From Zoogloeaceae bacterium G21618-S1 (GTDB taxonomy: Bacteria > Pseudomonadota > Gammaproteobacteria > Burkholderiales > Rhodocyclaceae): a stretch of DNA of 64,000 bases. The stretch is from assembly GCA_027214125.1 (NCBI GenBank), contig JAPWHF010000009.1, forward strand, positions 186,001-250,000, written 5' to 3'. Positions 15,019 through 33,723 of the stretch are shown one piece after another. The translations under genes were made by a program, and so were the position numbers. The notes below the pieces were generated by a model. It did no database searches. It saw nothing but the letters and a program-made list of their open reading frames with translations, and was not told where the DNA came from. The first letter of the stretch is position 1. The number at the start of each line of letters is the position of its first letter.

Positions 15019-15054
15019 TGTTCCTCAACGTAGCAGGTGCTCCAAGGTGGAGCA
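15019..15054 (+). promoter_or_regulatory. tandem enhancer-like sites upstream of pedF
   Basis: Two imperfect palindromes of the form TGYTCC-N5-GGARCA: TGTTCCTCAACGTAGCA at 15019-15035 and TGCTCCAAGGTGGAGCA at 15038-15054, spaced 19 bp centre to centre. They lie about 130-165 bp upstream of the sigma54 element at 15184. The same paired pattern occurs upstream of exaC and between pedH and the relay operon, so it is a candidate binding site for the AcoR-like activators. Confidence 0.65.
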
Positions 15055-15183
15055 AATTGGGCAGACTCATGTGTCACCTGTCACGCAACTAGTGTGCCAG
15101 CAAAGACTGAATGATGGCTGACCATCCGTCGTTTCGCCACTAACGGCCGCTTCCGACAGAGCCCATCCGTCCACTGACACAAC

Positions 15184-15198
15184 TGGCACAGCCTTTGC
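15184..15198 (+). promoter_or_regulatory. sigma54 -24/-12 promoter of the pedF operon
   Basis: TGGCACAGCCTTTGC matches the sigma54 consensus TGGCAC-N5-TTGC exactly, with GG and GC 12 bases apart. It is 66 bases upstream of the pedF ATG and downstream of two enhancer-like palindromes. Confidence 0.85.
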
Positions 15199-15263
15199 GG
15201 GGGAAAGCTCACCCCCTGCCATCGAGCAGCGGATCGAACTCAACCAAGATAGAGGACCCAACA

Positions 15264-15695
15264 ATGTCTTATTTCTCTGCACGTCGTCCCTTGCGCCACG
15301 CCACGATGATCTTTGCCCTGGCAGTGTCGGGCTACGCCTTCGCCCACGGCGACGTCACACCGCAAGCCGTCGACACCTCCACACTCAAGCCCGTTGGCAC
15401 TGACTGGCTGGCCGAAAACCCCTACCGGGGCGACAAGGAAGCCATCCGTATTGGCGATTCCGCCTACAACCAGAACTGTGCCCGCTGCCACGGCCTGGGC
15501 GGCATTTCTGGCGGTATCGCGCCCGATCTGCGTATGCTGCCCGAAGGCGCCGAAGGCGACGAAATCTTCCTGAACCGTATTCGCCACGGCGCCACGCGCA
15601 ATGGCAAGGTCTACATGCCCCCGTTCGAAGGTATCCTGCAGCAAGAGGCCATGTGGTCGATTCGTGCCTGGTTGGAGACTGTCCATGAAGAATGA
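15264..15695 (+). CDS. pedF: cytochrome c-550 PedF
   Basis: 143-residue periplasmic c-type cytochrome of the PedF/ExaB-associated family, the electron acceptor of PQQ-dependent alcohol dehydrogenases. It has a signal peptide ending YAFA, then HGDVTPQAVDT and NPYRGDKEAIRIGDSAYNQNCARCHGLGG with one CARCH haem site, and MPPFEG with a likely axial Met. The ATG at 15264 is preceded by AGAGGA. It is the first gene of a sigma54-controlled operon and overlaps the next gene by 11 bases, suggesting translational coupling. A second, diverged relative lies at 30960. Confidence 0.93.
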   Translation: MSYFSARRPLRHATMIFALAVSGYAFAHGDVTPQAVDTSTLKPVGTDWLAENPYRGDKEAIRIGDSAYNQNCARCHGLGGISGGIAPDLRMLPEGAEGDEIFLNRIRHGATRNGKVYMPPFEGILQQEAMWSIRAWLETVHEE

Positions 15696-16536
15696 ACTAC
15701 GTCGTTTCGCATGCCGCGCGCTCACGGCCGCGGCATGTCTGGCCGGCGGCCTGAGCTTCGCCGCGGCAGCCGACGCGCTGGAAATCCAGCAGCCCGGCCG
15801 CCTGCGGGTTGCCGTGTATGCCGACTTCCCGCCGTACTCTGCCAAGGGCAAGGGCGTCGACATCGCCATCGGCCGTGAGTTGGCCAAGCGCATGGGCCTG
15901 ACCGCCGACGTGGTGGAAGTCACCGCCGATGAGGACATGAACGACGATCTGCGCAACATGGTGTGGAAAGGTCACTACCTGGGCACCCGCCCGGGAGACG
16001 TGATGCTCCATGTGCCCGTCGATCAGCACCTGGCCGAAATGAACGACAAGGTCCGCATCTTCGCCCCTTATCACCTCGAATCGCTTGCCGTTGCGCGCGA
16101 TCCGTCGCGCGTGCCGCCGGTCAAGGGCTCTGCCGCCACCGCACTGGAGGTTTTTACCCGCGAAAAGATCGGTGTCGAAACCGCCAGCCTGGCCGACGAT
16201 TTTCTGCTCAGTGTGCTCAATGGACGACTGCGTAACAACGTGACCCACTTCAAGACCGTCAATGAAGCGGTGGCTGCGCTCAAGGCTGGCGACATTGCCG
16301 CGGTGATGGCCTCACGTGCCGAAATCGAAGGCGCCCTGGGCACCCCCGGCCGTATCGACGTCGGCCCCGTGTCGATGCCGGAGCTGCGCATCAAGGGCTG
16401 GGCACTGGGCATGGCCGTCAAGGCCGACAGCACGGTTCTGGCCGAGGCGCTCTCGCAGGCCATGATTGACATCCAGCGCGACGGCACACTGGCGCGCATC
16501 TTCAAAGAGCACGGCATCACCCATCAAACCCCCTGA
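15685..16536 (+). CDS. quinoprotein dehydrogenase-associated substrate-binding protein (PedG/MoxJ-like)
   Basis: 283-residue periplasmic protein with the fold of family 3 solute-binding proteins. It has a signal peptide (ACLAGGLSFAAAADA), then LRVAVYADFPPYSAKGKGVDIAIGRELAKRMGL and a C-terminal LSQAMIDIQRDGTLARIFKEHGI. Members of this group accompany PQQ dehydrogenases and cytochrome c-550 rather than ABC permeases, and none is present here. MoxJ/XoxJ-type proteins are thought to help dehydrogenase activation or maturation rather than import. It lies between pedF (overlapping) and the beta-propeller gene, all probably in one transcript. Confidence 0.88.
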   Translation: MKNELRRFACRALTAAACLAGGLSFAAAADALEIQQPGRLRVAVYADFPPYSAKGKGVDIAIGRELAKRMGLTADVVEVTADEDMNDDLRNMVWKGHYLGTRPGDVMLHVPVDQHLAEMNDKVRIFAPYHLESLAVARDPSRVPPVKGSAATALEVFTREKIGVETASLADDFLLSVLNGRLRNNVTHFKTVNEAVAALKAGDIAAVMASRAEIEGALGTPGRIDVGPVSMPELRIKGWALGMAVKADSTVLAEALSQAMIDIQRDGTLARIFKEHGITHQTP

Positions 16537-16576
16537 CAACAGAATCGATGGCACGACCATCGGCGAGGAGACACCC

Positions 16577-17527
16577 ATGCGCAAAACCGCGCTAAAAACC
16601 TTGGCGGCGTTGGCATTCTTCGGCCTTGCCGGCACGGCCCTGGCCGCTCCGCTGGCCTACGTACCCAACGAAAAATCCGGCACCGTCAGCGTCATTGACA
16701 CCGCCACGGACACCGTCACCACCACCCTCAAGATCAGCGAGCGGCCGCGTGGCATCGCCATCGCCCCCGACGGCAGCCGACTGTATCTGACCGACTCGCC
16801 CACCGAGTCGCTCATCGTGGTCGATCTGGCCACCGGCAAGCCGGTCGATAGCTGGAAGCTGGGCGACTCTCCCGAGGGCTTGTACATCTCCAAAGACGGC
16901 ACCCTACTGGCTGCAGCGGTCGAAGAGGACAACAGCGTCGCCCTGCTTGAGGCGGCCACCGGCAAGACACTGGCGCACATCAAGGTCAAGGGCGAAAACC
17001 CCGAGCACGCCGTGTTCAGCCCCGACGGCAAGTGGATCTACGCCAGTGCCGAAGATGCCGAGCAGGTCGACGTGATCGATGTCGCCGCCATGAAGCAGGT
17101 GGCGCAGATTCCGGTCGCCAAACGTCCGCGCGGTATCGGATTTACGCCTGACGGCAGCCGTGCCTACGTGGCCTGCGAAATCGACAGCACGGTGTTCGCC
17201 ATCGACGTGGCCAGTCACACGGTAATCGCCAGCATTCCCGCCGGCAAGTTCTCCAATGGCATCACCGTCAGTCCCGACGGCAAGCGGGTATACGTCTCCA
17301 ACGGCAAGGACGGCACGGTGATGGCCATCGACACCATGAGCAACACCGTCGTAGGCACCGTACCAGTCGGCAAGCGCCCGTGGAACATGGCGATCACGCC
17401 CGACGGCGCCAAACTGTATGTCGCCAACGGCCGCTCAGACAGCATCACCGTGATCGACACCGCCAGCCTCAAGGCGATCAAGGACATCCCGGTCGGCAGC
17501 TTCCCCTGGGGCGTAGTGATCCGATGA
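16577..17527 (+). CDS. PQQ-catabolism-associated YVTN beta-propeller protein
   Basis: 316-residue secreted protein with a signal peptide (LAALAFFGLAGTALAAP) and about seven YVTN-type repeats of roughly 42 residues (AYVPNEKSGTVSVIDTATDTV, YVACEIDSTVFAIDVASHTV, YVSNGKDGTVMAIDTMSNTV, YVANGRSDSITVIDTASLKA). It matches the beta-propeller family repeatedly found beside pedF-type cytochromes and PQQ alcohol dehydrogenases. Its function is not established; a scaffold or electron-relay accessory is possible. The ATG at 16577 has GGCGAGGAG upstream. Its stop overlaps the cytochrome b561 start (ATGA). Confidence 0.9.
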   Translation: MRKTALKTLAALAFFGLAGTALAAPLAYVPNEKSGTVSVIDTATDTVTTTLKISERPRGIAIAPDGSRLYLTDSPTESLIVVDLATGKPVDSWKLGDSPEGLYISKDGTLLAAAVEEDNSVALLEAATGKTLAHIKVKGENPEHAVFSPDGKWIYASAEDAEQVDVIDVAAMKQVAQIPVAKRPRGIGFTPDGSRAYVACEIDSTVFAIDVASHTVIASIPAGKFSNGITVSPDGKRVYVSNGKDGTVMAIDTMSNTVVGTVPVGKRPWNMAITPDGAKLYVANGRSDSITVIDTASLKAIKDIPVGSFPWGVVIR

Positions 17528-18048
17528 GCCCGCGCTACAGCCGCGTCGCCATGGGCCTGCACTGGCTCATGGCAGTGCTCGTGATCGGTCTGATTGGCTG
17601 GGGGCTATGGATGTCCGACCTGCCCAAGGGGCCGGAGCGCGGCTGGGCGATCGGCATTCACAAATCCTTCGGGATGCTGGCCTTGCTGCTTGTTTTGGTG
17701 CGGCTCGGCTGGCGACTCGGCCACCGCCCACCAGCCAATCCGGCGCTGACAGCCATCGAAACGCGCCTGGCCAACGCGGCCCACCACCTGCTGTATGTAC
17801 TACTTGTGGTGGTGCCCTGCATGGGGCTGACGTCGGTCAATTTCACCAAATACCCACTCAAGTTCTTCGGCATCGAAGTGCCCAAAGCCGGCTGGCCTGA
17901 TGAGGCGCTCAATACGCTGTTCAGCACTACCCACAAGTTTCTGGCGTGGACGCTGATCGCGCTGATCGTGCTGCATGTCGCCGCCGCCATTCGTCACGCC
18001 ATCCGCCGGGACGGCACCATTCAACGGATGCTGCCGGGCAAGCACTGA
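17524..18048 (+). CDS. cytochrome b561
   Basis: 174-residue four-helix membrane cytochrome of the bacterial b561 family. His residues expected to hold two b haems are visible in RVAMGLHWLMAVLV, IGIHKSFGMLALLL, NAAHHLLYVLLVVVPCMGL and TTHKFLAWTLIALIVLHVAAAIRHAI. It starts within the stop of the beta-propeller gene (ATGA overlap). In this operon it may pass electrons between the quinone pool and the periplasmic PedF system, in either direction. That role is inferred from context. Confidence 0.92.
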   Translation: MSPRYSRVAMGLHWLMAVLVIGLIGWGLWMSDLPKGPERGWAIGIHKSFGMLALLLVLVRLGWRLGHRPPANPALTAIETRLANAAHHLLYVLLVVVPCMGLTSVNFTKYPLKFFGIEVPKAGWPDEALNTLFSTTHKFLAWTLIALIVLHVAAAIRHAIRRDGTIQRMLPGKH

Positions 18049-18076
18049 ACACCGGGCGATACACATGTGCACCTAA

Positions 18077-18113
18077 ACGACACACCTGCTCCATTTCGGA
18101 ACAGGTGTGTCGT
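18077..18113. terminator. 37-bp palindrome at the end of the pedF operon
   Basis: Inverted repeat with arms 18077-18092 and 18098-18113 around ATTTC, with one mismatched pair in the arms (18089/18101). It lies 28 bp after the b561 stop, in the gap between convergent genes. It would form a stable RNA hairpin in both directions but lacks a U-run. Its core, TGCTCC-ATTTC-GGAACA, also fits the enhancer-like motif found upstream of the sigma54 promoters here, so it may be a protein site instead of, or as well as, a terminator. Confidence 0.55.
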
Positions 18114-18217
18114 GCGCGCCCGCACACCCCATGTGGCCGCTACGTCAACTTCCCGAAAGCGTCGATGCAATCCGACCGGTGTCGTGGGCGACGAGGATCA
18201 GGCGCATGGCGCCGGGC

Positions 18218-18628
18218 TCAATCATCGCGCGGACCAATCCAAGCAAACGGGTTGTAGGCCAGCTCCCACAAATAGCCGTCCGGATCCTTGAAGTAGCCGC
18301 TGTAGCCACCCCAAAACACTTTTTGGGGTTCTTTGGCCAGCGTCGCACCAGCGGCCAACGCTTGCGCCATCACCTGATCTACCTCGGCTTCTGACGACAG
18401 GTTGTGCGCCAGCGAAAAACCGGGGAAGCCCTCGCCCTCCTTGCTCACCTGCGCGTCCTCTGCCAGCGCATCGCGGCCGTACAGCCCGAGCCAGGTGCCA
18501 TTGAGCGTAAAGAAGGCAACCCCCGGCGGCGACGCCATACGCGGGAAGTCCAGGCCATCTTCATAGAAATGAATAGACGCAGCCAGATCACGCACTCCCA
18601 GGGTCACCATGCTGATACGAGGTTTCAT
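18218..18628 (-). CDS. VOC (glyoxalase/bleomycin-resistance) family protein
   Basis: 136-residue vicinal-oxygen-chelate protein with two beta-alpha-beta-beta-beta modules. It begins ISMVTLGVRDLAASIHFYEDGL and ends GYSGYFKDPDGYLWELAYNPF, where the Glu near the C-terminus is a usual metal ligand. The ATG at 18628 follows GGAGGCAG and overlaps the stop of the upstream acetyltransferase gene (ATGA), so the two form a small operon. Substrate unknown; such proteins range from metal-dependent lyases to antibiotic-binding proteins. Confidence 0.88.
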   Translation of the reverse strand: MKPRISMVTLGVRDLAASIHFYEDGLDFPRMASPPGVAFFTLNGTWLGLYGRDALAEDAQVSKEGEGFPGFSLAHNLSSEAEVDQVMAQALAAGATLAKEPQKVFWGGYSGYFKDPDGYLWELAYNPFAWIGPRDD

Positions 18629-20205: not shown

Positions 20206-21726
<1,521 letters not shown>

Positions 21727-21786: not shown

Positions 21787-21801
21787 GCAGGGGGCGTGCC
21801 A
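21787..21801 (-). promoter_or_regulatory. sigma54 -24/-12 promoter of exaC
   Basis: On the minus strand TGGCACGCCCCCTGC matches TGGCACG-N4-TTGC with one change (C for the first T of the -12 box); GG and GC spacing is correct. It is 60 bases upstream of the exaC ATG. Confidence 0.75.
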
Positions 21802-21933
21802 AAGTGGCCGGCAGCCTCGCCAGGCACCCCGAACATCCGGTCTCTGCAAGGGATCAAGCGACGATCACCGCACCGGACGGCCGGATCGCGCAGGCACCAA
21901 CACGTAGCGCGCAATGCTTCGAAAAAGCACAAC

Positions 21934-21969
21934 TGTTCCATCATGGAGCGCTCTTGAGCAGGTGGAACA
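21934..21969 (-). promoter_or_regulatory. tandem enhancer-like sites upstream of exaC
   Basis: TGTTCCATCATGGAGCG at 21934-21950 matches TGYTCC-N5-GGARCA closely. The next site exactly 19 bp on, CTTGAGCAGGTGGAACA at 21953-21969, has a perfect GGAACA half. They lie about 135-170 bp upstream of the exaC sigma54 promoter and 60-95 bp upstream of the second AcoR-like gene. Confidence 0.6.
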
Positions 21970-22029
21970 CACCAGAACCACCGATTCACGGCCGCCTGCA
22001 GACGGCACGAATCCTGCTGTCATCACACC

Positions 22030-23922
22030 ATGTCGCCGCCCAAACCCACCGCTGCCACAGCCCCACACATCGACGCTTCCTGGCAGCGCTCGACCAACTA
22101 CGGCCTCAGCCCCGAGCACCCGCTGCACCTGGACATCGCCAGCCGCTCCCTGCTCGCCGAGCGCCTCGAAGCCAACGCCCGCCTGATGAGCTATGCCCAG
22201 CCGGTCATGGAATACCTGCACCGCCAGCTCACACAGTCGTCTTCCATGGTCTTGCTGGCCGACCGCGACGGTCTGGTGCTGCGTACCGTGGGCGATGGCG
22301 ATTTTGTCGATCGCGCCCAGCGTGTCGCCCTCACCCCCGGCGCCCACTGGCGCGAAGCCGTGATGGGAACCAATGCCATCGGCACCGTCGCCCACGAATC
22401 GCGCACCATTGCGGTTTGCGGCGAGCAGCACTTTCTCGAGCGCAACCGCTTCCTCACCTGCATCGCCACGCCCATCCACGCCCCCACCGGTGGCATGCTC
22501 GGCATTCTCGACCTCTCGAGCGACACCCGCGTCACCTTGCCCCACGCCCAGGCGCTGCTTACCTCCACCGCCGAGATGATCGAGCACCGGCTGATCGAAT
22601 CGCTCGATACCGGCAAAGTCATCGTGCGCTTCAGCCCCCACGCCGAAATGCTGGGCACACCCATCGAAGGCATCGCCCTGTTTGACGAAGCCGGCCGCAT
22701 GATCGGCTGCAACCGACGTGCCCGCGCCCTGCTCGGCCTCGCCGACCCCACCACGCTGCCCGACTTCACCACCTGCTTCCAACGCGACTGGCGGCGCCTC
22801 CCCTGCTTGGTCGAAGCCAGCGCCACCGGCCCGATTCTGCTGCGCACCTCACCGCCCCCAGCGCTTTCCGCCCGCCTGCAATGGCGCAATCCACCGCCAC
22901 CCACTCCGCATTACAGCCACGCGGCGCCCACGGTCAAGCACGACACAACAAAGCGACATAGCGGCTTCGACGTTCTCGACCACGGCGACCCCCGCATGCA
23001 ACAGGCCATTCGCCGCGCACGGCGCATCGCCCGGCACAACATACCGCTGCTCATCCAGGGCGAAACCGGCTCCGGCAAAGAACTGTTCGCCCGCGCTTAC
23101 CACGCCGAAGGCCCGCGCAGCGACGCCCCCTTCGTCGCCGTCAACTGCGCCGCCATCCCCGCCACCCTGATCGAATCCGAACTCTTCGGCTACGCCCCCG
23201 GCGCCTTCACCGGCGCCAAAGCCAAAGGCGCCCCCGGCCGCCTGCAAGACGCCGACGGCGGCACCCTGTTTCTCGACGAAATCGGCGACATGCCCTTGCC
23301 GCTGCAAGCCGTGCTGCTACGCGTACTCGAAACCCGCCGCGTTACCCCGCTCGGCAGCAGCCACGAAAACCCCATCGACATCGCCCTCGTCTGCGCCAGC
23401 CACCGCCCCCTGCACACCCTGGTCGCCGAAGGCGCCTTCCGCGCCGACCTGCTCTTCCGGCTCAACGGCCTGTCCGTCACCCTGCCCGCCCTGCGCGAAC
23501 GCGCCGACTTCGACCGCTTCCTCGACACCCTGCTCGCCGACGCCGCCGACGGCCGCCCCATCCGCCTCTCCGACACCGTGCGCGCCCAACTACGCGCCTA
23601 CCCCTGGCCCGGCAATGTCCGCCAACTCAAAAACGCCCTGCGCGTCATGGTCGCCCTGCTCGACGACACCGACACCGTCATCGAACTCGCCCACCTGCCC
23701 GAAGACCTCGTCACCGCCATCGCCAACACCCCGCCCCATGTACACGCCGCCGAAGACCTGCGCAGCTGCGAACAACGCCTCGTCCGCGCCTGCCTGCAAC
23801 GCCACGGCGGCAACGTCTCAGCCGCCGCCCGAGAGCTCGGCATCACCAGAACCACGCTGTACCGGAAATTGCGTCAGGATGATGACGCCAGACAAAACAA
23901 CGACCCCAGCGAGTCGACGTAG
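22030..23922 (+). CDS. second AcoR-like sigma54-dependent activator
   Basis: 630-residue enhancer-binding protein of the same build as the one at 12942-14966. It has a GAF-like sensor (about 35-190), an AAA+ domain with Walker A GETGSGKE (344-351) and GAFTGA (391-396), Walker B GGTLFLDEIGD, and a Fis-type helix-turn-helix (GGNVSAAARELGITRTTLYRKL). It has intact residues for sigma54 contact, so it should be functional. It is divergent from exaC, whose promoter is of sigma54 type, and probably activates it in response to an alcohol or aldehyde. The ribosome site before ATG 22030 is weak; no better start is evident. Confidence 0.92.
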   Translation: MSPPKPTAATAPHIDASWQRSTNYGLSPEHPLHLDIASRSLLAERLEANARLMSYAQPVMEYLHRQLTQSSSMVLLADRDGLVLRTVGDGDFVDRAQRVALTPGAHWREAVMGTNAIGTVAHESRTIAVCGEQHFLERNRFLTCIATPIHAPTGGMLGILDLSSDTRVTLPHAQALLTSTAEMIEHRLIESLDTGKVIVRFSPHAEMLGTPIEGIALFDEAGRMIGCNRRARALLGLADPTTLPDFTTCFQRDWRRLPCLVEASATGPILLRTSPPPALSARLQWRNPPPPTPHYSHAAPTVKHDTTKRHSGFDVLDHGDPRMQQAIRRARRIARHNIPLLIQGETGSGKELFARAYHAEGPRSDAPFVAVNCAAIPATLIESELFGYAPGAFTGAKAKGAPGRLQDADGGTLFLDEIGDMPLPLQAVLLRVLETRRVTPLGSSHENPIDIALVCASHRPLHTLVAEGAFRADLLFRLNGLSVTLPALRERADFDRFLDTLLADAADGRPIRLSDTVRAQLRAYPWPGNVRQLKNALRVMVALLDDTDTVIELAHLPEDLVTAIANTPPHVHAAEDLRSCEQRLVRACLQRHGGNVSAAARELGITRTTLYRKLRQDDDARQNNDPSEST

Positions 23923-24395: not shown

Positions 24396-24585
24396 GGCCA
24401 CCACGCTCAAAAACCACATATGACCAACCGAAACACGCGACCGTAACGAAACACACCCTTCTTACTACAGCACCCAGTAGGAACTCACCGCCTCCCGCTC
24501 AATGTTGCTTGCCGTCCCTCGCCAAATGGCATCCAATCCATACTGGATACGATGAAATGTATCGACGATTCCCATGCGAGGAAAA

Positions 24586-24951
24586 ATGGAACTTCGAGAC
24601 TTTGTTGCACAAACACTGACCGAAATTGCCGAAGGAGTGGTGCGGGCTCAAGAGACGCTTACGCCTATTGGAGCAAAGGTCAATCCGCAAATGTCCCGCG
24701 TATTTTCAAAGGGAGAGAAAAACTACGAGGCGTTCGGCTGGGCAAACGGAGAAGGCGCAAACCCTGTTTTATTAGTGAGCTTCGATGTAGCAGTAACTGC
24801 ATCGGAAGGGAGAAAAACAAAGGGCGGCATCGGCGTTGTCACCGGCATTGTTTCTCTTGGTTCCAGTGGAGCAACAGATAGAAACGATACGGCTGTGTCT
24901 CGCTTGAGTTTCAAGGTTCCGCTGCTGCTCCCGCTCCACAAGAGCAGCTGA
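24586..24951 (+). CDS. hypothetical protein of an unnamed small family
   Basis: 121-residue protein, predicted cytosolic: MELRDFVAQTLTEIAEGVVRAQ, then VNPQMSRVFSKG, FDVAVTASEGRKTKGGIGVV and VSRLSFKVPLLLP. I know similar uncharacterised proteins with the same opening helix and the ending SRhxFKVPhxLP, but no function. GAGG lies four bases before ATG 24586, which I prefer to the ATG four codons upstream. Base composition is clearly lower in GC than its neighbours, and it sits between palindromic repeats, which suggests recent acquisition. Confidence 0.6.
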   Translation: MELRDFVAQTLTEIAEGVVRAQETLTPIGAKVNPQMSRVFSKGEKNYEAFGWANGEGANPVLLVSFDVAVTASEGRKTKGGIGVVTGIVSLGSSGATDRNDTAVSRLSFKVPLLLPLHKSS

Positions 24952-25065
24952 GCCCAACGCAACGCCCAACCCAAGATACTGTCCGATCTATCGGTGAGGG
25001 TGAGCGGCTGCTGCATGAATCTACGCTGCGGACTCGAGGCCCAAGGGCGCAATCGGCATCCAGCC

Positions 25066-25095
25066 GATCGGTTCGGGGAATTCTCCGAACCGATC
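25066..25095. repeat. 30-bp near-perfect palindrome
   Basis: GATCGGTTCGG at 25066-25076 and CCGAACCGATC at 25085-25095 form a palindrome centred on GAATTC with a single mismatched pair. It is followed by no U-run on either strand, so it looks more like a protein-binding or cruciform site than a terminator. Confidence 0.65.
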
Positions 25096-25151
25096 TGAAC
25101 GATGCCACAGCACAAAGCCGGGCAGACTCAGACCATGGAAAAAATATACAA

Positions 25152-25180
25152 GGGCGCAATAACCGAAGGGCATTGCGCCC
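25152..25180. repeat. REP-like hairpin
   Basis: GGGCGCAAT (25152-25160) and ATTGCGCCC (25172-25180) flank AACCGAAGGGC. The arrangement, a nine-base stem around an AACCGAAGGGC loop, resembles widespread dispersed palindromes of Proteobacteria. Confidence 0.55.
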
Positions 25181-25351
25181 TACATCACGCCAGAACACCC
25201 AATCCGTCTGCGTCAGCGCTCCCGGCGCAATCCAGACGCCGGGTGCATGTCTTGAACTACGACCTCGTCAAATACACCCCATAAAAAACCGGCGCCGCCT
25301 GACAACAGGTTTCGGCGCCGGCGATGGCAAGTCAGCCTGCGTGGATCACCC

Positions 25352-26209
25352 TCACTCCTGGTAATACCCAACCCCAATCAGTGCCCCGCCTTCGCGACGC
25401 ACATACGAGCTCTTTTTTTCGACGGCATTGGTGACCGGGTTGCGCCAGACGTAGTCGACCACGGCTTCTTCGCCGGAGGCGGTCTTGTCGATCATTTCCT
25501 GGACAATGGCGTGGCCTTCGGCGTCGGTGATGCCGACGGCGTCCTTGCCGGTGAGCATGGGGTTCATGCCGATAGCGCTGTATTTGCCACTGGCCAGATC
25601 AATGGCAAAAACATAGAGATCGTTCTGCACAAACACGCCCTGGCGGTCGTTGAACGCGGCGTTGGCTTTGTCCATGCCTTCGGTCTTGGCGTAGGCGATG
25701 GCGCGAGTGAGCATTTTTTGCGCGTCGGCGGCGGTGGAGCGCGGGGCGAAGTAGCCGACGCCGACGACGTAATCATTGACCTTGCTCACATAGCTGACCT
25801 TCGGCTCGACATGGTTGGTCTTGCGGTTGAGCCACATGTAGCGCACCTGGCCTTCGCCGTTGCGGGCGGTAATGTCGATCATGTCGCGGAAGAGCGGGTT
25901 GCCTGCGGCGTCGGTGGTGCCGAGCACGTTGAGGCCGACCAGCGCTTCGGGCGCGGCGCCGCTGGCGTGGTAGGTGCCCTGATTGTCGATCACGAAAACG
26001 TAGAGATCTTTGCTGACGAACTTGCCTTTCTGGTTGTTGAAGGCGGCAAAAGAGCGCTCGGGGCCGTTGGCCTGCATGTATTTAACGGCCTGATCGAACA
26101 TGGCGCGGGCTTCGCGCGGGGTGCCTCGATCGGCGGCATGGGCGCCGGCGATCAGGCCCAGGCTTAGGAGTGCGGCAGCGGCGTAGTTAAGACGATAGCG
26201 GCGGGTCAT
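25352..26209 (-). CDS. secreted double-Cache domain protein
   Basis: 285-residue periplasmic protein with a signal peptide (LLSLGLIAGAHA) and two similar Cache-type sensor domains of about 125 residues. Each begins A...A-x-x-F/N...FNNQKGKFVSKDLYVFVID or FNDRQGVFVQNDLYVFAID and ends VSYVSKVNDYVVGVGYF or SSYVRREGGALIGVGYY. There is no transmembrane or signalling domain, so it is a free ligand-binding protein rather than a receptor. It lies 38 bp after the response regulator gene and probably belongs to that operon, perhaps presenting a ligand to the sensor kinase. Confidence 0.85.
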   Translation of the reverse strand: MTRRYRLNYAAAALLSLGLIAGAHAADRGTPREARAMFDQAVKYMQANGPERSFAAFNNQKGKFVSKDLYVFVIDNQGTYHASGAAPEALVGLNVLGTTDAAGNPLFRDMIDITARNGEGQVRYMWLNRKTNHVEPKVSYVSKVNDYVVGVGYFAPRSTAADAQKMLTRAIAYAKTEGMDKANAAFNDRQGVFVQNDLYVFAIDLASGKYSAIGMNPMLTGKDAVGITDAEGHAIVQEMIDKTASGEEAVVDYVWRNPVTNAVEKKSSYVRREGGALIGVGYYQE

Positions 26210-26247
26210 GATTTCAATTTCCTGTTCCGGGTTGATTGGCGTCTGGA

Positions 26248-26901
26248 TCAGCACGGCACGGACGACGGCGTCGGAAGTTCGACGAGACCGTGGCGAGCAG
26301 CCAGTCGGAGAAGCGAAAAATCGGTTTCGGCGTCCAGCTTCTGGCGGACCGCCGAGAGATGATTAAGCACGGTTTTACGACTCAGATGCATCTGCAGCGC
26401 GATACGCGGGGGCGATTCACCGCTGGCGGCCATACGCAGCACTTCGAACTCGCGCGGGGTCAGCCGCGAGAGCAGGTCGTCTTCTTCGAGCGCTGCGTTG
26501 GCCACCACCTGCGCGACATCGGCAGAGAGCACTCGGCGACCCGCCGCAACCTGGCGGATACCACTGATCAGCTCGCCCGGATCGCTGCTTTTGGTGAGGT
26601 AGCCCATGGCGCCGGCACGAAAGGCCTGAGTCACAAAGCCCGGGCTGTCGTGCATGGTGAGCACAAGCACCCGAATGCCGGGCGACCGGGCCAGGATACG
26701 CCGAGTGGCCTCAATGCCGCTTGCACCACGCAGGCTGAGGTCGACAACGGCCACATCGAGCGCGATATCCCGCGCCGCGGCGTAAGCGTCGTCGACAGTG
26801 GCGGCTTCGGCTGCCACACACATATCGGGCTCGGCATCGATCAGGCGCCGATAGCCAGAGCGAACGACGTTGTGGTCGTCAAGCAGAAGAATCCGGATCA
26901 T
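26248..26901 (-). CDS. NarL/LuxR-type response regulator
   Basis: 217-residue regulator with a receiver domain (DD at 8-9, phosphorylated Asp54 in VVDLSLRG, Lys in YLTKSS) and a LuxR-type helix-turn-helix (LTPREFEVLRMAASGESPPRIALQMHLSRKTVLNHLSAVRQKL). It overlaps the kinase stop (ATGA) and has GGAGGGGG upstream. Regulators of this type (AgmR/PedR/ErbR) control PQQ alcohol dehydrogenase genes in pseudomonads. The adjacent divergent pedE-like gene is the obvious target. Confidence 0.92.
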   Translation of the reverse strand: MIRILLLDDHNVVRSGYRRLIDAEPDMCVAAEAATVDDAYAAARDIALDVAVVDLSLRGASGIEATRRILARSPGIRVLVLTMHDSPGFVTQAFRAGAMGYLTKSSDPGELISGIRQVAAGRRVLSADVAQVVANAALEEDDLLSRLTPREFEVLRMAASGESPPRIALQMHLSRKTVLNHLSAVRQKLDAETDFSLLRLAARHGLVELPTPSSVPC

Positions 26902-28196
26902 ACCCCCTCCTTTTTGGCGTGTGCCAGCGGAAGTTCCCAAGCAATTATCACGCCAGCGGTCTCCGCGTCTTCGATACGAAGGAGTCCCCCAACCATGGCG
27001 GCACGCTCGCGCATACCACGGATGCCACTGCCGGCGTCTCGCATGATCGCCGCTGCGCGGCCTCGGCCATCATCGGCCACGGACATGACCAGGCGCTGGC
27101 CCGCGGCCTCCAGTGCAATGCGAACCCGTTTGGCGCCACTGTGTCTGAGCACATTGGTCAGCGCTTCCTGCAAGGTCCGGTAAAGCGCCAGCGCGGCCGG
27201 CGCTGAGAGCAGCGGTAAGGCACTGGGGAGGTCGATGGCTGTGGCGATTCCGGTGGCACGCGCCGCCCAGCCATGGGCGTGGTCACGCACGGCCGCGAGC
27301 ACGCCCATGTGTTCCAGGCCATGCGGTTTAAGCCGTGCCAACAACTCGCGCACATGCAATTGCACCCGACTGGCCTCGCCACGAATCTCGATGGCCGAAG
27401 CGGCAAGTGCCGACGGTTCCGCACGCCCGGCATTGCGCTCGATGTAGCTGGCCGACGCGGCGATAGCCACCAACGACTGACCAAATTCATCATGCAGTTC
27501 GCGGGCGATTTCGCGACGCTCCTCCTCTTGCACGCTGATCAGCCGGCGCGTCAGATCGCCTTCGCGCGCTTGCGCCTCAGCCAGTTTGGCGGCCAACTGG
27601 TCGATGGCCCGCGAAATCCGCGCGAATTCGGGCAGTTCGAAACATGCCGATGGGTGTGCAAAGCACCCCTCGCCGATCGCCTTGATGCGACGCTCCAACT
27701 CGCGGACCGGGGACAGCGCGCGGCCGACCGCCCACCACACCGACAGCAGCGACAACACGCCAAATGCTGCCAGCGCGGCAAGTTGGCGCGACGCATCGTG
27801 AATGATCTCGTCAATCTCGCTGCGCGGATCGGGGCGGATCACGTAGGTCTCGCCCCCCAAGGCGAAACGCCGGGCCGCGGTGTGATTGGAACTGCTATCC
27901 GGAAACCAGGTGGCGATGGCATCGATCAGCCCGAGTGATTCATTCTGGAGCGGTCGCTCCATATCGGGACGATCCTGCTCCAGCGACAGGTGGCGCAATT
28001 CGTGTGTGCCGATGCTGCTCAGCGCCTGCGGACCTAGCTCGGCCACGGCCAGCAACAAGGCCGCCAGATGCGAGGAGGCCGCCATTTCCTCGGCCACATC
28101 TTCGCGCAGGGAAGTCAGCACCAGCGTACAGGCGACCGCCAGCAAGGCCACCAGCGCCGCGCCGAGATACAGCACAAGTTTGTGTCTCAAGTCCAT
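26898..28196 (-). CDS. NarL-family sensor histidine kinase
   Basis: 432-residue membrane kinase. It has a membrane helix at about 8-30, a periplasmic domain to about 138, a second helix 138-158, and a HAMP-like linker. A HisKA_3 dimerisation domain with the phospho-accepting His235 in ARELHDEFGQ and a HATPase domain (EALTNVLRHSGAKR, DDGRG, GIRGMRERA) follow. It is coupled to the response regulator and divergent from the PQQ dehydrogenase gene at 28408. It is similar in plan to the kinase at 37808, including the same ELHDEFGQ box. The sensed signal is unknown; PedS-type kinases sense alcohol metabolism or lanthanides. Confidence 0.92.
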   Translation of the reverse strand: MDLRHKLVLYLGAALVALLAVACTLVLTSLREDVAEEMAASSHLAALLLAVAELGPQALSSIGTHELRHLSLEQDRPDMERPLQNESLGLIDAIATWFPDSSSNHTAARRFALGGETYVIRPDPRSEIDEIIHDASRQLAALAAFGVLSLLSVWWAVGRALSPVRELERRIKAIGEGCFAHPSACFELPEFARISRAIDQLAAKLAEAQAREGDLTRRLISVQEEERREIARELHDEFGQSLVAIAASASYIERNAGRAEPSALAASAIEIRGEASRVQLHVRELLARLKPHGLEHMGVLAAVRDHAHGWAARATGIATAIDLPSALPLLSAPAALALYRTLQEALTNVLRHSGAKRVRIALEAAGQRLVMSVADDGRGRAAAIMRDAGSGIRGMRERAAMVGGLLRIEDAETAGVIIAWELPLAHAKKEGV

Positions 28197-28226: not shown

Positions 28227-28241
28227 GCAAGCGACATGCCT
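28227..28241 (-). promoter_or_regulatory. possible sigma54 element upstream of the kinase gene
   Basis: On the minus strand AGGCATGTCGCTTGC has the correct GG/GC spacing and a perfect TTGC box, but an imperfect -24 box. It is 30 bases upstream of the kinase ATG. No enhancer-like pair was found near it, so confidence is low. Confidence 0.35.
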
Positions 28242-28257: not shown

Positions 28258-28274
28258 CCGGGAAAATTTCCCGG
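28258..28274. promoter_or_regulatory. palindrome in the kinase / pedE divergent region
   Basis: CCGGGAAAATTTCCCGG is a perfect 17-bp palindrome with a central A, followed by a further CGGGAA half at 28280. It lies 134 bp upstream of the PQQ dehydrogenase start and 62 bp from the kinase start. It is a candidate dyad for the LuxR-type regulator of this locus. Confidence 0.5.
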
Positions 28275-28407: not shown

Positions 28408-30291
28408 ATGACACGACACCCCCTACCCTTTCGGCCCCAACTGCGCCCCCTTGTGCTGGCCATCGCGGCCAGTATCGCCATGCCGGCTGCCGCGGCCAAG
28501 CTGGTGAGTTGGGAAGACATTCAGAACGATCACCAGACGACCGGCGATGTGCTGTCCTACGGTCTGGGACTCAAGGCCCAGCGCCACAGCCCACTAAAGC
28601 AGGTCAACACCAAGACGGTCGCCGCACTGGCACCGGCCTGGAGCTTCTCCTTTGGTGGCGAGAAGCAGCGCGGCCAGGAAGCGCAGGCCCTGGTGCACGA
28701 GGGCGTGATCTACGTCACCGCCTCGTACTCGCGCTTCTTTGCCATCGAGGCCAAGACCGGCAAGCGCCTGTGGGAATACGAACATCGCCTACCCGATGAC
28801 ATCCGCCCGTGTTGCGACGTGGTGAATCGGGGCCCGGCCATTTATGGCGACAAGGTGTTCTTCGGCACGCTCGACGCAGCCATCGTGGCGCTCAACAAGG
28901 ACACCGGCAAAGTCGTGTGGAAGAAGAAGTTCGGCGACCACAAGGTGGGCTACACCATGACCGGCGCGCCCTTCGTGGTGAAAGACCAGAAGAGCGGCAA
29001 GATATTGCTGGTGCACGGCTCCTCGGGCGACGAGTTCGGCGTAGTCGGCTGGCTGTTTGCGCGCGACCCGGACACCGGCGAAGAAGTGTGGGCACGGCCG
29101 ATGGTCGAAGGCCACATGGGTCGCCTCAACGGCAAGGACAGCACTCCCACCGGCGACGCCAAGGCGCCGAGCTGGCCGGACGATCCGAAGTCGCCCACGG
29201 GCAAGGTCGAGGCCTGGAGCCATGGTGGCGGCGCGCCCTGGCAGACCGCCAGCTTCGACATCGAGAACAACATGGTGGTGATCGGCGCCGGCAACCCGGC
29301 CCCGTGGAACACCTGGAAGCGCACCAAGGAAGGCGACGATCCGCGCAACTGGGACAGCCTGTTCACCTCTGGCCAGGCCTATGTCGACGCCAGCACCGGC
29401 GAGCTCAAGGGCTTCTACCAGCACACCCCGAACGACGCATGGGACTTCTCGGGCAACAACTCGGTCGTGCTCTTCGAGTACAAGGACCCGAAAACCGGCA
29501 AGCTGGTCAAGGCCTCGGCACACGCCGACCGCAACGGCTTCTTCTTCGTCACCGACCGCGAAAAACTGGCCAAAGGGGCCGGCTACCCAAACAAGCCCAC
29601 CTCTCTAATTGGTGCCTGGCCGTTTGTCGACGGCATCACCTGGGCCTCCGGCTTCGATCTCAAGACCGGCAAGCCGATCGAGAACAACAATCGGCCGCCG
29701 CTCCCCAAAGAGGGCGCGAACAAGGGCGAATCGATCTTCGTTTCACCGCCCTTCCTCGGCGGCACCAACTGGATGCCGATGTCCTACAGCCCGGACACCG
29801 GCCTATTCTATGTGCCAGCCAACGAATGGGCCATGGACTACTGGACCGAGCATCTCACCTACAAGGCAGGCTCGGCCTATCTCGGCCAGGGTTTCCGCAT
29901 CAAGAAACTGCATGACGATCATGTCGGCGTATTCCGCGCGATCGATCCCAAGACTGGCAAGATCGTTTGGGAACACAAAGAAGAGTTCCCGCTGTGGGCG
30001 GGCACACTGACCACCGCGGGTGGCTTGCTGTTCTCCGGCACATCCAACGGCTACGTCAAGGCCTTCGATGCCAAGACTGGCGAGGAGTTGTGGAAGTTCC
30101 AGACCGGCTCTGGCGTGGTTTCGGTGCCGATTACCTGGGAGATGGACGGCGAGCAGTACGTCGGCATCCAGTCGGGGTACGGCGGTGCCGTGCCGCTGTG
30201 GGGTGGCGATCTGGCTGAACTGACCAAGCAGGTCACTCAGGGCGGTTCATTCTGGGTCTTCAAGTTGCCCAAGCAACTGGCGGCCAACTAA
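28408..30291 (+). CDS. pedE: PQQ-dependent alcohol dehydrogenase, calcium type (PedE/ExaA)
   Basis: 627-residue periplasmic quinoprotein alcohol dehydrogenase with an eight-bladed propeller. It has a signal peptide to about residue 30; the vicinal disulfide Cys135-Cys136 ([10 protein letters not shown]); Glu209 (GDEFGVVG); Asn296 (GAGNPAPWN); and Asp346 in NDAWDFSGNN. The position two after the catalytic Asp is Ser348, as in calcium enzymes, not the Asp of lanthanide enzymes. Repeated WxFxTGSG / AxDxxTGKxxW tryptophan-docking motifs are present. ATG 28408 has GGAGACAAGGAA upstream. It oxidises primary alcohols to aldehydes, passing electrons to a PedF-type cytochrome. Sequence is close to PedE/ExaA. 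Confidence 0.95.
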   Translation: MTRHPLPFRPQLRPLVLAIAASIAMPAAAAKLVSWEDIQNDHQTTGDVLSYGLGLKAQRHSPLKQVNTKTVAALAPAWSFSFGGEKQRGQEAQALVHEGVIYVTASYSRFFAIEAKTGKRLWEYEHRLPDDIRPCCDVVNRGPAIYGDKVFFGTLDAAIVALNKDTGKVVWKKKFGDHKVGYTMTGAPFVVKDQKSGKILLVHGSSGDEFGVVGWLFARDPDTGEEVWARPMVEGHMGRLNGKDSTPTGDAKAPSWPDDPKSPTGKVEAWSHGGGAPWQTASFDIENNMVVIGAGNPAPWNTWKRTKEGDDPRNWDSLFTSGQAYVDASTGELKGFYQHTPNDAWDFSGNNSVVLFEYKDPKTGKLVKASAHADRNGFFFVTDREKLAKGAGYPNKPTSLIGAWPFVDGITWASGFDLKTGKPIENNNRPPLPKEGANKGESIFVSPPFLGGTNWMPMSYSPDTGLFYVPANEWAMDYWTEHLTYKAGSAYLGQGFRIKKLHDDHVGVFRAIDPKTGKIVWEHKEEFPLWAGTLTTAGGLLFSGTSNGYVKAFDAKTGEELWKFQTGSGVVSVPITWEMDGEQYVGIQSGYGGAVPLWGGDLAELTKQVTQGGSFWVFKLPKQLAAN

Positions 30292-30935: not shown

Positions 30936-30959
30936 TTGGCGCCTACAGGAGATACCGCA

Positions 30960-31451
30960 ATGTCCTTACCGAGCAAGTCCGGCATGCGCAGCATCGCCGC
31001 AATCGGCCTCCTCTGGGTCGGTGCGCTGATCGCGCCAGCACACGCCACATCCACCCCGCCACCGGCACCCGATGTCGACAGTTCGGCGCTGGCCGCGCTG
31101 GCGGACCTGGCTGGCGACCTCAATCCATATCGTGGCGATCTGCGCGCCATCGCCGTCGGCCGCGACGCATTCAACCAAAGCTGTGCGCGCTGTCACGGCG
31201 TCGACGCCGACGCCCATGCGTCACCGGCTCCCGATTTACGCCGCATCGGCCGAATCTGCGCCCGCGTACCCGAGCCCGACCTCCAGCTCCGCTGTCAGAC
31301 AGACGCGGACGCCTATTTCCGCGACACCGTCGAAAAGGGCAAGATCAAACTCGGTATTGAGCACATGCCGCCTTGGAAGAACGTGCTATCGACCGAGCTG
31401 ATCTGGGCCATCCGCAGCTTCGTCGAAACATCCCAGGGTCGGGCCAAGTGA
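30960..31451 (+). CDS. PedF-related cytochrome c
   Basis: 163-residue c-type cytochrome with a signal peptide (IGLLWVGALIAPAHA), haem site in FNQSCARCHGVDADAHASPAPDLRR, and HMPPWKNVL near the end as the likely axial Met. It shares NPYRGDLRAIAVGRDAFNQSCARCHG with PedF (15264) but has a 20-residue insertion with two extra cysteines (GRICARVPEPDLQLRCQTDAD). It follows pedE and the pentapeptide gene and is a likely dedicated electron acceptor of this dehydrogenase. ATG 30960 follows CAGGAG. Confidence 0.9.
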   Translation: MSLPSKSGMRSIAAIGLLWVGALIAPAHATSTPPPAPDVDSSALAALADLAGDLNPYRGDLRAIAVGRDAFNQSCARCHGVDADAHASPAPDLRRIGRICARVPEPDLQLRCQTDADAYFRDTVEKGKIKLGIEHMPPWKNVLSTELIWAIRSFVETSQGRAK

Positions 31452-31479
31452 ACCGCCCCATAGCGGCGTCCACGCAAAC

Positions 31480-31515
31480 GGGGCGGCATGCGCACCGTTT
31501 CGCGCATGCCGCCCC
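31480..31515. terminator. 14-bp stem between convergent genes
   Basis: Perfect arms at 31480-31493 and 31502-31515 (GGGGCGGCATGCGC and its complement) with an eight-base loop, located between the convergent cytochrome c and pedH-like genes. It probably separates the two transcripts, though it has no U-run. Confidence 0.65.
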
Positions 31516-31540
31516 GCGGGCGAGTTTCAAACGCCGGGGA

Positions 31541-33325
31541 TCAGCTCTTATGGAGCTTGAACACCCACACCGAACCCCCTTGCTCAAGGAAGTTCACCCG
31601 CTGGGCGACGTCGCCGCCCCACAGCGGTACAGCACCGCCCCAACCGGAGACCACAGCGATGTACTGCTCGCCGTCCTGTTCCCAGGTCACCGGAGGTGCA
31701 ACCACGCCGGAACCGGTCTGGAAGCTCCACACTTCCTTGCCAGTGGTGGCATCCAGCGCCTTCAGGTAGCCCTCGGGCGTGCCATAGAAGGTCAGGTTGC
31801 CGGCGGTGGTGAGCACGCCACCCCACAACGGAGCGTAGTTCTTGTTTTCCCACACGATCTTGCCGGTGACCGGATCAACCGCACGCAGCGCGCCGATGTA
31901 GTCCTCGTTCAGCGCCTTGATGGTGAAACCAGCGCCCAGGTAGGCCGCACCTTTTTTGTACGACACGGGCTCGTTCCAGATATCCATCGCCCATTCGTTG
32001 GCCGGCACATAGAAGTAACCGGTCTTCGGGTTGTAGGCGATTTGCTGCTGGTTCTTGCCGCCGAGGAAGGACGGTGCGGAGGTGACCACTTCGCCCTTCT
32101 TGCCATCACCACTCTTGCTCGGGTCGCCCGGGCGGTTGGCGTCGTCATACACCGGACGGCCGGTCTTCAGGTCGATGCTCTTGGCCCAGGTGATCTTGTG
32201 CACGAACGGGAAAGCGTTGAGCAGCTTGCCGTTGGTGCGGTCGAGGACGAAGAAGAAACCGTTGCGGTCGGCCTTGCCGCCGGCCTTGATGGTTTTGCCG
32301 TCCTTGACGTAGTCGAAGGAGACAAACTCGTTCACGCCATCGTAGTCCCAGCCGTCATGCGGCGTGGTCTGGTAGTGCCAGACGATCTTGCCGGTTTCCG
32401 GGTTGATCGCAACGGTGGAGGACGAGTAGAGGTTGTCGCCCGGGCGCAGGTGGCTGTTCCACGGGGCCGGGTTGCCGGTGCCGGCGAAGATCAGGTTGGT
32501 ATCCGGATCGTAGGTCGCGCCAGCCCAGGTGGCTGCACCGCCGGTCTTCCACAGATCGCCCGGCCAGGTGGCATTGGTCTTGCCGGAAATGCCGTTATCC
32601 ATGGCTTTTCCGTCGGCACCATAGGTGTAGCCCATGTGGCCTTCGACCACCGGACGCGACCACTTCATTTTGCCGGTCAGGGCGTCGCGCGCCTCGATAC
32701 GGCCAACCACGCCAAACTCACCACCGGACACGCCGGAGATGACCATGCCCTTGACGATGATCGGTGCAGCCGTCATCGAGTAGCCGGCGTGATAATCGTC
32801 GACCTTCTCTTTCCACACGACCTTGCCGGTTTCGCGGTTCAGCGCCACGAGCTGGGCATCGAGCGTGCCGAAGATCACCAGATCACCAAACAGTGCGGCG
32901 CCGCGGTTGACCACGTCGCAACACGGCATGATGCCGTCGGGCAGGCGGTGCTCGTACTTCCACAGCTTCTTGCCGGTCTTCACATCCAGCGCAAAAAGGC
33001 GGCTATACGAGGCGGTGACAAACATCACGCCGTCGTGAATCAAGGGCTGCGATTCTTGTCCGCGCTGCTTCTCCCCGCCGAAGGACATCGACCACACCGG
33101 CACCAGATCCTTGATGGAATCGGTGTTGATCTTGTCCAGGGCCGAATATCGCTGGCCCTGCGTGCCCATACCGAAAGACACCACATCGTTCGCGGTGGCC
33201 GCGTCCTGCACGATGTCGGCGTCGCTCACGCCTTTGGCCTGAATGCTGCCCATGCCCATCACCGATGCGGCGATCAGCGAGACGGCGACAGCCCAGCGCT
33301 TGTTGGATTTGCTCCTGCCTTCCAT
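31541..33325 (-). CDS. pedH: PQQ-dependent alcohol dehydrogenase, lanthanide type (PedH)
   Basis: 594-residue periplasmic quinoprotein closely resembling PedH. It has a signal peptide to about residue 30, Cys135-Cys136 ([10 protein letters not shown]), Glu203 (GGEFGVVG), Asn285 ([22 protein letters not shown]), and catalytic Asp327 followed by Asp329 in [12 protein letters not shown]. The extra Asp is the hallmark of lanthanide-dependent alcohol dehydrogenases, as in XoxF and PedH. ATG 33325 has AAGGAGG upstream. A sigma54 element is 80 bp upstream, and it is divergent from the SoxYZ/MBL/TonB operon. I prefer pedH over xoxF because overall sequence follows PedH and no xoxG/xoxJ pair is attached. 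Confidence 0.94.
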
Positions 33326-33404
33326 TGAGTAACCTCCTTGAGTTTTCTTGTCCTGCCCCGTGCTTGCCCAGGCGGGCAATGCCGGAACATGGCAAGGGAC
33401 TTCC

Positions 33405-33419
33405 GCAAGAGGCATGCCA
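33405..33419 (-). promoter_or_regulatory. sigma54 -24/-12 promoter of pedH
   Basis: On the minus strand TGGCATGCCTCTTGC matches TGGCAC-N5-TTGC with one change in the -24 box. It is 80 bases upstream of the pedH ATG; the paired enhancer-like sites are about 145-180 bp further upstream. Confidence 0.7.
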
Positions 33420-33564
33420 TTGAGCGACACCTGTCGCACCTGACCATGCCAGCCGCCGTTCAAGCGCCCGCAAACGCTCACTGAACGCGCCATCGGAACG
33501 GCTTGCGCGCCTGCCACAGCCCACCTCACGAATGTCAATCGTGACCCGCAACTGGCCAGCGCGC

Positions 33565-33600
33565 TGCTTCGAAACACGTCACTTGTTCCAAAGTGAAACA
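33565..33600. promoter_or_regulatory. shared enhancer-like sites between pedH and the relay operon
   Basis: TGTTCCAAAGTGAAACA at 33584-33600 matches TGYTCC-N5-GGARCA. A degenerate copy, TGCTTCGAAACACGTCA, lies exactly 19 bp before it at 33565-33581. The pair stands between two divergent sigma54 elements (33405-33419 minus, 33709-33723 plus) and could serve both. Confidence 0.6.
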
Positions 33601-33708
33601 CCTGCACGGGCATGATGCGCCGTATTGTAGGGAAGCGCCAACACACACCTGCGCCAACCCCCGGCAAGCAACAGTCGTTGCGCGGCATTGCCGTCGTCAG
33701 GCAAAAGC

Positions 33709-33723
33709 TGGCACGACGCTTGC
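33709..33723 (+). promoter_or_regulatory. sigma54 -24/-12 promoter of the SoxYZ-like relay operon
   Basis: TGGCACGACGCTTGC is a perfect match to the sigma54 consensus TGGCACG-N4-TTGC. It is 55 bases upstream of the ATG at 33778 and 109 bases after the enhancer-like pair. Confidence 0.87.

What the first reader, a model, noticed from the sequence alone, without database searches (positions are those of the whole stretch)
15019..33723. A shared enhancer code ties three PQQ-oxidation loci into one sigma54 regulon
Three separate intergenic regions (15019-15054, 21934-21969, 33565-33600) each carry a pair of TGYTCC-N5-GGARCA-like dyads, and in all three the two sites are exactly 19 bp apart. Each pair stands 109-180 bp from sigma54 -24/-12 elements (15184, 21787 minus, 33405 minus, 33709), and two AcoR-like enhancer-binding proteins with intact GAFTGA motifs lie beside two of them. 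The repeated spacing makes chance unlikely. The proposed regulon couples pedF/PedG-like/propeller/b561, exaC, pedH and the relay operon. Sites and spacing are seen; the binding protein is inferred.
Basis: partly seen in the sequence, partly recalled or inferred. Interest (0 to 1): 0.82.

Follow-up and report, generated by a model that had tools for sequence, protein, structure and literature searches.

The report
Paired-site enhancer code for alcohol oxidation
A block of alcohol-oxidation genes in a Denitromonas bacterium and its relatives carries a repeated paired DNA site, two palindromes exactly 19 bases apart, which is probably the landing pad of its own activator proteins, and which sits not only before genes but, unusually, also at the end of an operon and inside a gene.

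Summary
The genome is most likely Denitromonas. Two reported pairs (15019-15054, 33565-33600) are conserved in five congeners. The middle pair was read one unit off: the conserved pair is 21915-21950. All are 17-bp dyads repeated at 19 bp. A matrix trained on these three finds two more in the window: 18068-18103, between the converging pedF and exaC operons, and 27936-27971, inside a histidine-kinase gene, in its most conserved stretch of DNA. Conserved sigma54-like promoters also face EBP1, EBP2 (weak) and the kinase: seven promoters and five arrays within 18.6 kb. In 35 loci of other species picked by a protein, not by the motif, the pedF 5' pair is present in 28 of 34 and the operon-3'-end pair in 26 of 35; a sigma54 motif lies upstream of pedF in 34 of 34 and around the operon end in 0 of 35. 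The regulon reading is well supported by sequence; the binding protein (EBP1, perhaps EBP2) is inferred. The new part is a conserved enhancer-type pair at an operon's 3' end, with no promoter motif nearby and, in 20 of 26 cases, no canonical terminator found.

The parts
12942..14966 (-). EBP1, GAF-AAA+-Fis-HTH sigma54 activator (AcoR-like), GAFTGA intact
   Evidence: Pfam (longer ORF to 15077); GAFTGA and HTH; NCBIfam (none of the 25 models shown over its cut-off)
15085..15099 (-). sigma54-type promoter TGGCACACTAGTTGC facing EBP1 (missed by reader)
   Evidence: conserved in five congeners; coordinates
15019..15054 (+). array A: tandem dyads, 19 bp; upstream of pedF, downstream of the EBP1 promoter (in the EBP1 leader)
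15184..15198 (+). sigma54-type promoter of the pedF operon
   Evidence: invariant in six genomes
15264..18048 (+). pedF cytochrome c550, PedG-like SBP, beta-propeller, cytochrome b561 (pedF start inferred)
   Evidence: Pfam; PedF equivalog over cut-off
18068..18103 (+). array B: tandem dyads in the gap between convergent operons; second dyad sits in an extended inverted repeat (18077-18113)
   Evidence: out of sample for the matrix; not listed as a terminator
20206..21714 (-). exaC acetaldehyde dehydrogenase (start inferred); DUF779, cyt c, GNAT, glyoxalase follow downstream
   Evidence: NCBIfam ExaC over cut-off; Pfam
21787..21801 (-). sigma54-type promoter of exaC (TGGCACGCCCCCTGC)
   Evidence: TGGCAC and GC cores conserved in six genomes
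   Evidence: footprint; genome scan
22004..22017 (+). weaker sigma54-like element facing EBP2 (GGCACGAATCCTGC); very close to the ATG at 22030
   Evidence: conserved in six genomes; uncertain
22030..23922 (+). EBP2, GAF-AAA+-Fis-HTH sigma54 activator
   Evidence: Pfam
26898..28196 (-). histidine kinase HK1, followed by response regulator (26248-26940) and Cache protein (25352-26254)
   Evidence: Pfam
27936..27971 (+). array D: tandem dyads inside HK1 (codons 76-87), downstream of the HK1 promoter
   Evidence: score 23.5; 8 of 10 codons from codon 78 identical in six genomes, the maximum of the gene
28227..28240 (-). sigma54-like promoter of HK1 (GGCATGTCGCTTGC)
   Evidence: conserved in six genomes; sigma54 motif before HK1 in 6 of 9 other loci
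31541..33329 (-). pedH-type PQQ dehydrogenase with WDYDG motif (start approximate, not tested)
   Evidence: NCBIfam; motif
33405..33419 (-). sigma54-type promoter of pedH
   Evidence: conserved
33565..33600 (+). array E: tandem dyads, 19 bp, between pedH and the SoxYZ-like operon
33709..33723 (+). sigma54-type promoter of the SoxYZ-like relay operon
   Evidence: conserved
33688..39181 (+). SoxYZ-like carrier, SoxH-like hydrolase, TonB receptor, histidine kinase (ORF bounds, first start not refined)
   Evidence: Pfam; NCBIfam

Best explanation
It is a self-contained sigma54 regulon for periplasmic alcohol oxidation, read by one tandem-dyad code: two 17-bp TGY(N11)RCA dyads (ideal TGYTCC-N5-GGARCA) whose starts lie exactly 19 bp apart. 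The likely reader is EBP1, an AcoR-like GAF-AAA+-Fis-HTH activator encoded at the locus, possibly with the related EBP2. On sensing its unknown ligand through GAF, two dimers would bind side by side on a pair and nucleate the hexamer. The hexamer would then loop to the nearby -24/-12 promoter and open it: pedF operon, exaC operon, pedH, SoxYZ-like relay operon, the HK1-RR operon, and the regulators themselves. Shown: the sites, spacing, promoter motifs and conservation. Inferred: the binding protein, looping and activation. Array B, at the 3' end of the pedF operon, I take to be the same protein's site, probably acting as a downstream enhancer or boundary; its role is the least certain step.
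For: Footprints of arrays A, C, E and their promoters in six genomes, and of B in six. In the own genome the 36-bp pattern is found in this locus only. In ten loci chosen only by EBP homology, 7 of 9 close dyad pairs are at 19 bp. Family-wide pattern: 60 matches at 58 places in 150 genomes, 12 of them in three training genomes, against 17 in 368 non-own genomes of the class. Of the 32 pattern-positive genomes 29 hold a PedG homologue, of the other 118 only 23 (Fisher p 1e-13; excluding Denitromonas 25 of 28, p 6e-12). PedG-chosen loci: 5' pair 28 of 34, 3' pair 26 of 35; sigma54 motif upstream of pedF 34 of 34, around the operon end 0 of 35. RpoN is present. EBP1 homologues sit beside the 5' pair in loci that span that gap (for example L117, L120, L122, L124, L137, L147).
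Against: No binding or expression data. EBP1 and EBP2 have near-identical recognition helices, so the reader protein cannot be told apart by sequence. exaC upstream pairs reach threshold in only 14 of 23 loci. The first dyads of arrays C and E are weak. The EBP2 promoter is nearly on top of its start codon. In one search the 5' pair is missing or below threshold in 6 of 34 and the 3' pair in 9 of 35. Two pattern hits, L126 and L128, lie 5.7 and 6.8 kb from EBP1 with no other panel gene nearby; three hits (L143, L144, L148) have no panel gene at all and look like chance; G009:C1:4141220 lies outside the known loci and was not examined; the reversed control also hit once (G003). Perfect single dyads also occur outside the locus in congeners (G004:C28:259580) and in the reversed control (1 each in G006 and G009).
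Confidence: 0.8

Rival explanations
1. The dyads are sites of another regulator encoded nearby (the LuxR-type response regulators or the AraC protein), not of the EBPs.
For: A response regulator and an AraC protein are also in the locus; no binding was tested.
Against: The dyad is of the TGT-N10-12-ACA type reported for fifteen EBP groups (PMC6615313, passages). In one search a sigma54 motif lies upstream of pedF in 34 of 34 loci, 28 of which also carry the pair. A different palindrome (CCGGGAAAATTTCCCGG) sits before pedE, where a LuxR-type regulator could act. L050 has a pair between an EBP1 homologue and exaC with no HK1 or RR1 match in its 19 kb.
Confidence: 0.1
2. Array B is simply the transcription terminator of the converging operons; its dyads are hairpin stems and its likeness to the enhancer pairs is secondary.
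For: In 3' elements pairing extends beyond the dyad (0.36-0.68 of 28 elements at arm positions 9-18, against 0.2-0.45 of 20 5' elements). In Denitromonas the second dyad is the core of a long inverted repeat. Five of 26 3' pairs overlap a hairpin plus T-rich tail.
Against: 20 of 26 3' pairs have no canonical terminator within 150 bp by my scan and one has a separate one; L142 shows a separate hairpin with six T, seen by eye and missed by that scan. A terminator needs neither TGYTCC/GGARCA letters nor a second dyad 19 bp away, yet a 19-bp pair is found in 14 of 19 genera (genera). The terminator scan does not list it in the window.
Confidence: 0.25
3. Array D is kept for the kinase's protein sequence, not as a DNA site.
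For: The peptide DMERPLQN is itself invariant in six genomes.
Against: Codons, third positions included, are identical for 8 of 10 from codon 78, against a gene mean of 0.127 per codon. Of nine HK1 genes in other loci, L114 and L151 have pairs at the same depth; L136 (depth not comparable), L119, L121 and L150 have weaker sites below threshold; L056, L140 and L178 have none.
Confidence: 0.3

Closest known systems
GAF-type bEBP regulons with TGT-N10-12-ACA UAS (such as AdhR in Clostridium; PMC6615313 and PMC7017808, passages only)
   Same: Sigma54 activators, inverted TGT/ACA repeats, -24/-12 promoters, alcohol metabolism; adhA1 and adhA2 have three predicted AdhR sites each
   Different: No fixed 19-bp tandem register and no operon-3'-end site in the passages read; different enzymes
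ped cluster of Pseudomonas putida (PMC12997753, passages only)
   Same: Same kinds of enzymes and helpers (PedE, PedH, PedF, PedG, pentapeptide protein, SoxYZ-like and SoxH-like proteins, kinase and LuxR-type regulators)
   Different: Regulators in the passages are kinases and LuxR-type proteins; 'RpoN', 'AcoR' and 'enhancer' do not occur in its main text and 'sigma54' occurs once, which I did not see
NtrC peak inside a gene downstream of the promoter (Caulobacter cdzI, PMC10274813, passage); FleQ leader sites (recalled)
   Same: An EBP bound downstream of a promoter or inside a gene
   Different: Here a paired site at an operon 3' end recurs in 14 of 19 genera examined

Membership tests
bacterial enhancer-binding proteins (sigma54 activators) | AAA+ sigma54-interaction domain with GAFTGA, Fis-type HTH, sensory GAF | tested here: met
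   EBP1 and EBP2: PF00158, PF02954, PF01590; GAFTGA
AcoR proper (acetoin catabolism) | regulates aco genes, responds to acetoin | not tested
aco genes were not searched for; ligand unknown; none of the 25 NCBIfam models shown for each EBP reached its cut-off.
sigma54 regulon | rpoN in the genome and conserved -24/-12 promoters | tested here: met
   PF04552 hit; seven elements conserved in six genomes, EBP2's a weak match
sigma54 regulon | expression lost without rpoN or EBP | not testable with these tools
   needs mutants
TGT-N10-12-ACA UAS class | inverted TGT/ACA, 10-12 bp apart | tested here: met
   TGY-N11-RCA dyads (some ends vary, such as GCG in array C); class definition from PMC6615313
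intrinsic terminator (array B) | GC stem followed by T-run | tested here: not met
   not in the window's list; in relatives 5 of 26 overlap one

The most novel reading that the evidence does not exclude
The activator of an operon also binds a conserved tandem enhancer at that operon's 3' end (array B) and inside another target gene (array D). It thereby ties promoter, terminator region and neighbouring convergent operon into one looped regulatory unit, a bacterial enhancer-terminator element that acts from downstream and can act as a boundary as well.
Probability: 0.4. Interest if true: 0.82.

Novelty: new variant of a known kind. Interest (0 to 1): 0.68.

Why it matters
It gives an exact, testable cis-code (two dyads, 19 bp) for sigma54 control of PQQ alcohol oxidation in this bacterial family, where the regulators in the passages I read for Pseudomonas are two-component and LuxR-type proteins. 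The conserved 3'-end pair is the surprising part: enhancer sites in bacteria are usually looked for before genes, and a site found at an operon's end in 14 of 19 genera makes downstream enhancer action or regulated boundary formation directly testable.

Tried and rejected
The idea that the perfect dyad at 18087 is only a hairpin: held at first, then weakened when the 19-bp partner at 18068 and the 3'-end recurrence appeared. Reversed-pattern control (2 matches): too lenient, since the class-wide search gave 17 forward against 2 reversed, so I use the class rate (about 0.046 per genome, about 7 in 150 before allowing for genome size). Spread of the code to the whole class: not supported; the class hits do not look like dyads. 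Separate 3' pairs at exaC ends: of 31 rows 13 have one, all where exaC converges on the pedF operon or in the two genomes of genus g69, whose loci appear twice each. Literature: ten searches listed no paper whose title or abstract start names this motif or a 3'-end EBP site; the library is open-access only, several lists were cut (one search held 9,085 papers, 20 listed), and beyond titles and abstract starts I read passages of six papers only: PMC12997753, PMC13390443, PMC7017808, PMC6615313, PMC6366067, PMC10274813.

Limits of counts: the matrix was trained on 16 distinct rows of arrays A, C and E from six Denitromonas genomes (two duplicate rows dropped), so scores of A, C and E there are circular; B, D and the other loci are out of sample. 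The 35 loci are the PedG best hits at E 3.4e-100 or better (38 genomes) minus three Denitromonas used in training; one more, G002, is of the same genus; one locus (G065) lacked a readable 5' end. Many of these loci had first been fetched through the motif, but membership of the 35 was set by PedG alone. The 3' window was 390 bp and the 5' window up to 500 bp. In one search I used 28 3' elements (25 of the 26, one identical row dropped, plus three Denitromonas) and 20 5' elements picked by hand. The background (20 of 504,208 positions at 21 or more) still includes true sites. Genus counts were made by hand from the table.
Full report
What the sequence shows. The window most likely lies in a Denitromonas genome: of the four named relatives of EBP2, three are Denitromonas (halophila, ohlonensis, iodatirespirans) and one an unclassified assembly. 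From window 12.9 kb to at least 34 kb the region is syntenic in five congeners, with gaps. Aligning the intergenic regions gives sharp footprints. Between EBP1 and pedF the conserved pair is 15019-15054; between pedH and the SoxYZ-like gene it is 33565-33600.

More than chance. A symmetrised 17-bp matrix from arrays A, C and E, scanned as a tandem, finds two further 19-bp pairs in the window: 18068-18103 (score 31.6) and 27936-27971 (23.5). Among the 17 sites scoring at least 9.4, five close pairs are at 19 bp, with one each at 5 and 24. Of 200 column-permuted matrices, 2 reached 23.5 at all. Across ten Denitromonas genomes, a 36-bp pattern with up to three mismatches gives four hits in each of the six syntenic genomes, all in this locus. 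The other four genomes gave 3, 2, 3 and 0; one hit (G009:C1:4141220) lies elsewhere and was not examined, and the reversed control hit once, in G003. The ideal dyad TGYTCC-N5-GGARCA occurs twice in the 4.39-Mb genome, at 15038 and 18087; about one is expected by chance, so it is the placement that counts.

Other genera. In ten loci chosen by EBP homology alone, 7 of the 9 pairs of good dyads within 120 bp are at 19 bp. In 150 family genomes a looser pair pattern matches 60 times (58 places) in 32 genomes, 12 of the matches in three training genomes. In 368 non-own genomes of the class it matches 17 times, so about 7 would be expected in 150. Of the 32 positive genomes 29 hold a PedG homologue, against 23 of the other 118.

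The operon-end element. I then picked loci by PedG homology only and scanned 35 non-training loci from 19 genera. A pair scoring 21 or more lies upstream of pedF in 28 of 34 and at the 3' end of the pedF operon in 26 of 35 (14 of 19 genera). The rest of these loci gave 20 such positions in 504,208, some of them true sites. A sigma54 motif is found within 400 bp upstream of pedF in 34 of 34, and within 400-500 bp of the operon end, on either strand, in 0 of 35. Of the nine misses, G123 keeps a perfect single dyad, G168 and G002 a fair one, and G068 and G125 two TGYTCC half-sites 16 bp apart. The 3' pair stays with the pedF operon where exaC has moved away (G082, G086, G094, G109, G143, G177), and the exaC ends there lack one. 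In Denitromonas the second dyad is the core of a long inverted repeat that changes sequence but stays largely palindromic, and 3' elements in general pair further out than 5' elements. Only 5 of 26 overlap a hairpin with a T-rich tail, 1 has a separate terminator and 20 have none by my scan; that scan missed the obvious separate one in L142 (seen), so it is not exhaustive. The window's hairpin is not called as a terminator.

The intragenic element. Array D lies in HK1 codons 76-87. Ten codons from codon 78 hold 8 that are identical in all six genomes, the maximum of the gene, against a mean of 0.127 per codon. It lies 256 bp downstream of a conserved sigma54-like element before HK1. Of nine HK1 genes in other loci, six have a sigma54 motif just upstream; two have a clear pair at the same depth, four a weaker site, three none.

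How it most likely works. The EBPs belong to the GAF-AAA+-Fis class with intact GAFTGA and RpoN is encoded. From established bEBP biology (recalled), dimers bind UAS dyads, assemble a hexamer and loop to the promoter. Two dimers at 19 bp would seed that assembly. Arrays C and E each lie between two divergent sigma54-type promoters. Array A lies upstream of the pedF promoter but downstream of the EBP1 promoter, in the EBP1 leader, which suggests autoregulation; D too lies downstream of the promoter it may serve. Through HK1 and its LuxR-type regulator the signal could pass to pedE, whose upstream region holds a conserved CCGGGAAAATTTCCCGG: a two-tier circuit, inferred. pedH has a WDYDG motif and pedE WDFSG; that these mark lanthanide and calcium types is recalled. 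For array B I favour EBP binding with a downstream-enhancer or boundary role, with a plain terminator as the main rival.

Novelty. The dyad type is known: TGT-N10-12-ACA (PMC6615313, passage). The fixed 19-bp tandem register, its family-wide link to PQQ alcohol oxidation, and the operon-end and intragenic placements were not found in ten searches of an open-access library, which is weak evidence of absence.

Noticed in passing
28258-28274: Perfect palindrome CCGGGAAAATTTCCCGG upstream of pedE, identical in four congeners and with one changed base in G007; candidate site of the adjacent LuxR-type response regulator.
   Followed up: partly
31541-33793 and 28411-30291: The two PQQ dehydrogenases differ at a motif that I recall as marking the metal: WDYDG (lanthanide type) in pedH, WDFSG (calcium type) in pedE; the pedH side carries a TonB receptor gene in the divergent operon.
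   Followed up: partly
24400-25352: In G006 and G004 this gap holds about 5.5 and 7.5 kb of extra DNA compared with the window.
   Followed up: no
L126 8001-8036 and L128 8001-8036: 19-bp pairs 5.7 and 6.8 kb from an EBP1 homologue with no other gene of the panel in the stretch; their target is unknown.
   Followed up: no
L117 7001-7036 and 13754-13789: In G077 both the exaC end and the pedG end, separated from each other, carry near-perfect pairs (scores 41 and 42).
   Followed up: partly
L179 and L183, pedG 3' end: Two loci (G068, G125) have two TGYTCC half-sites 16 bp apart instead of a 19-bp pair, possibly a variant spacing.
   Followed up: no
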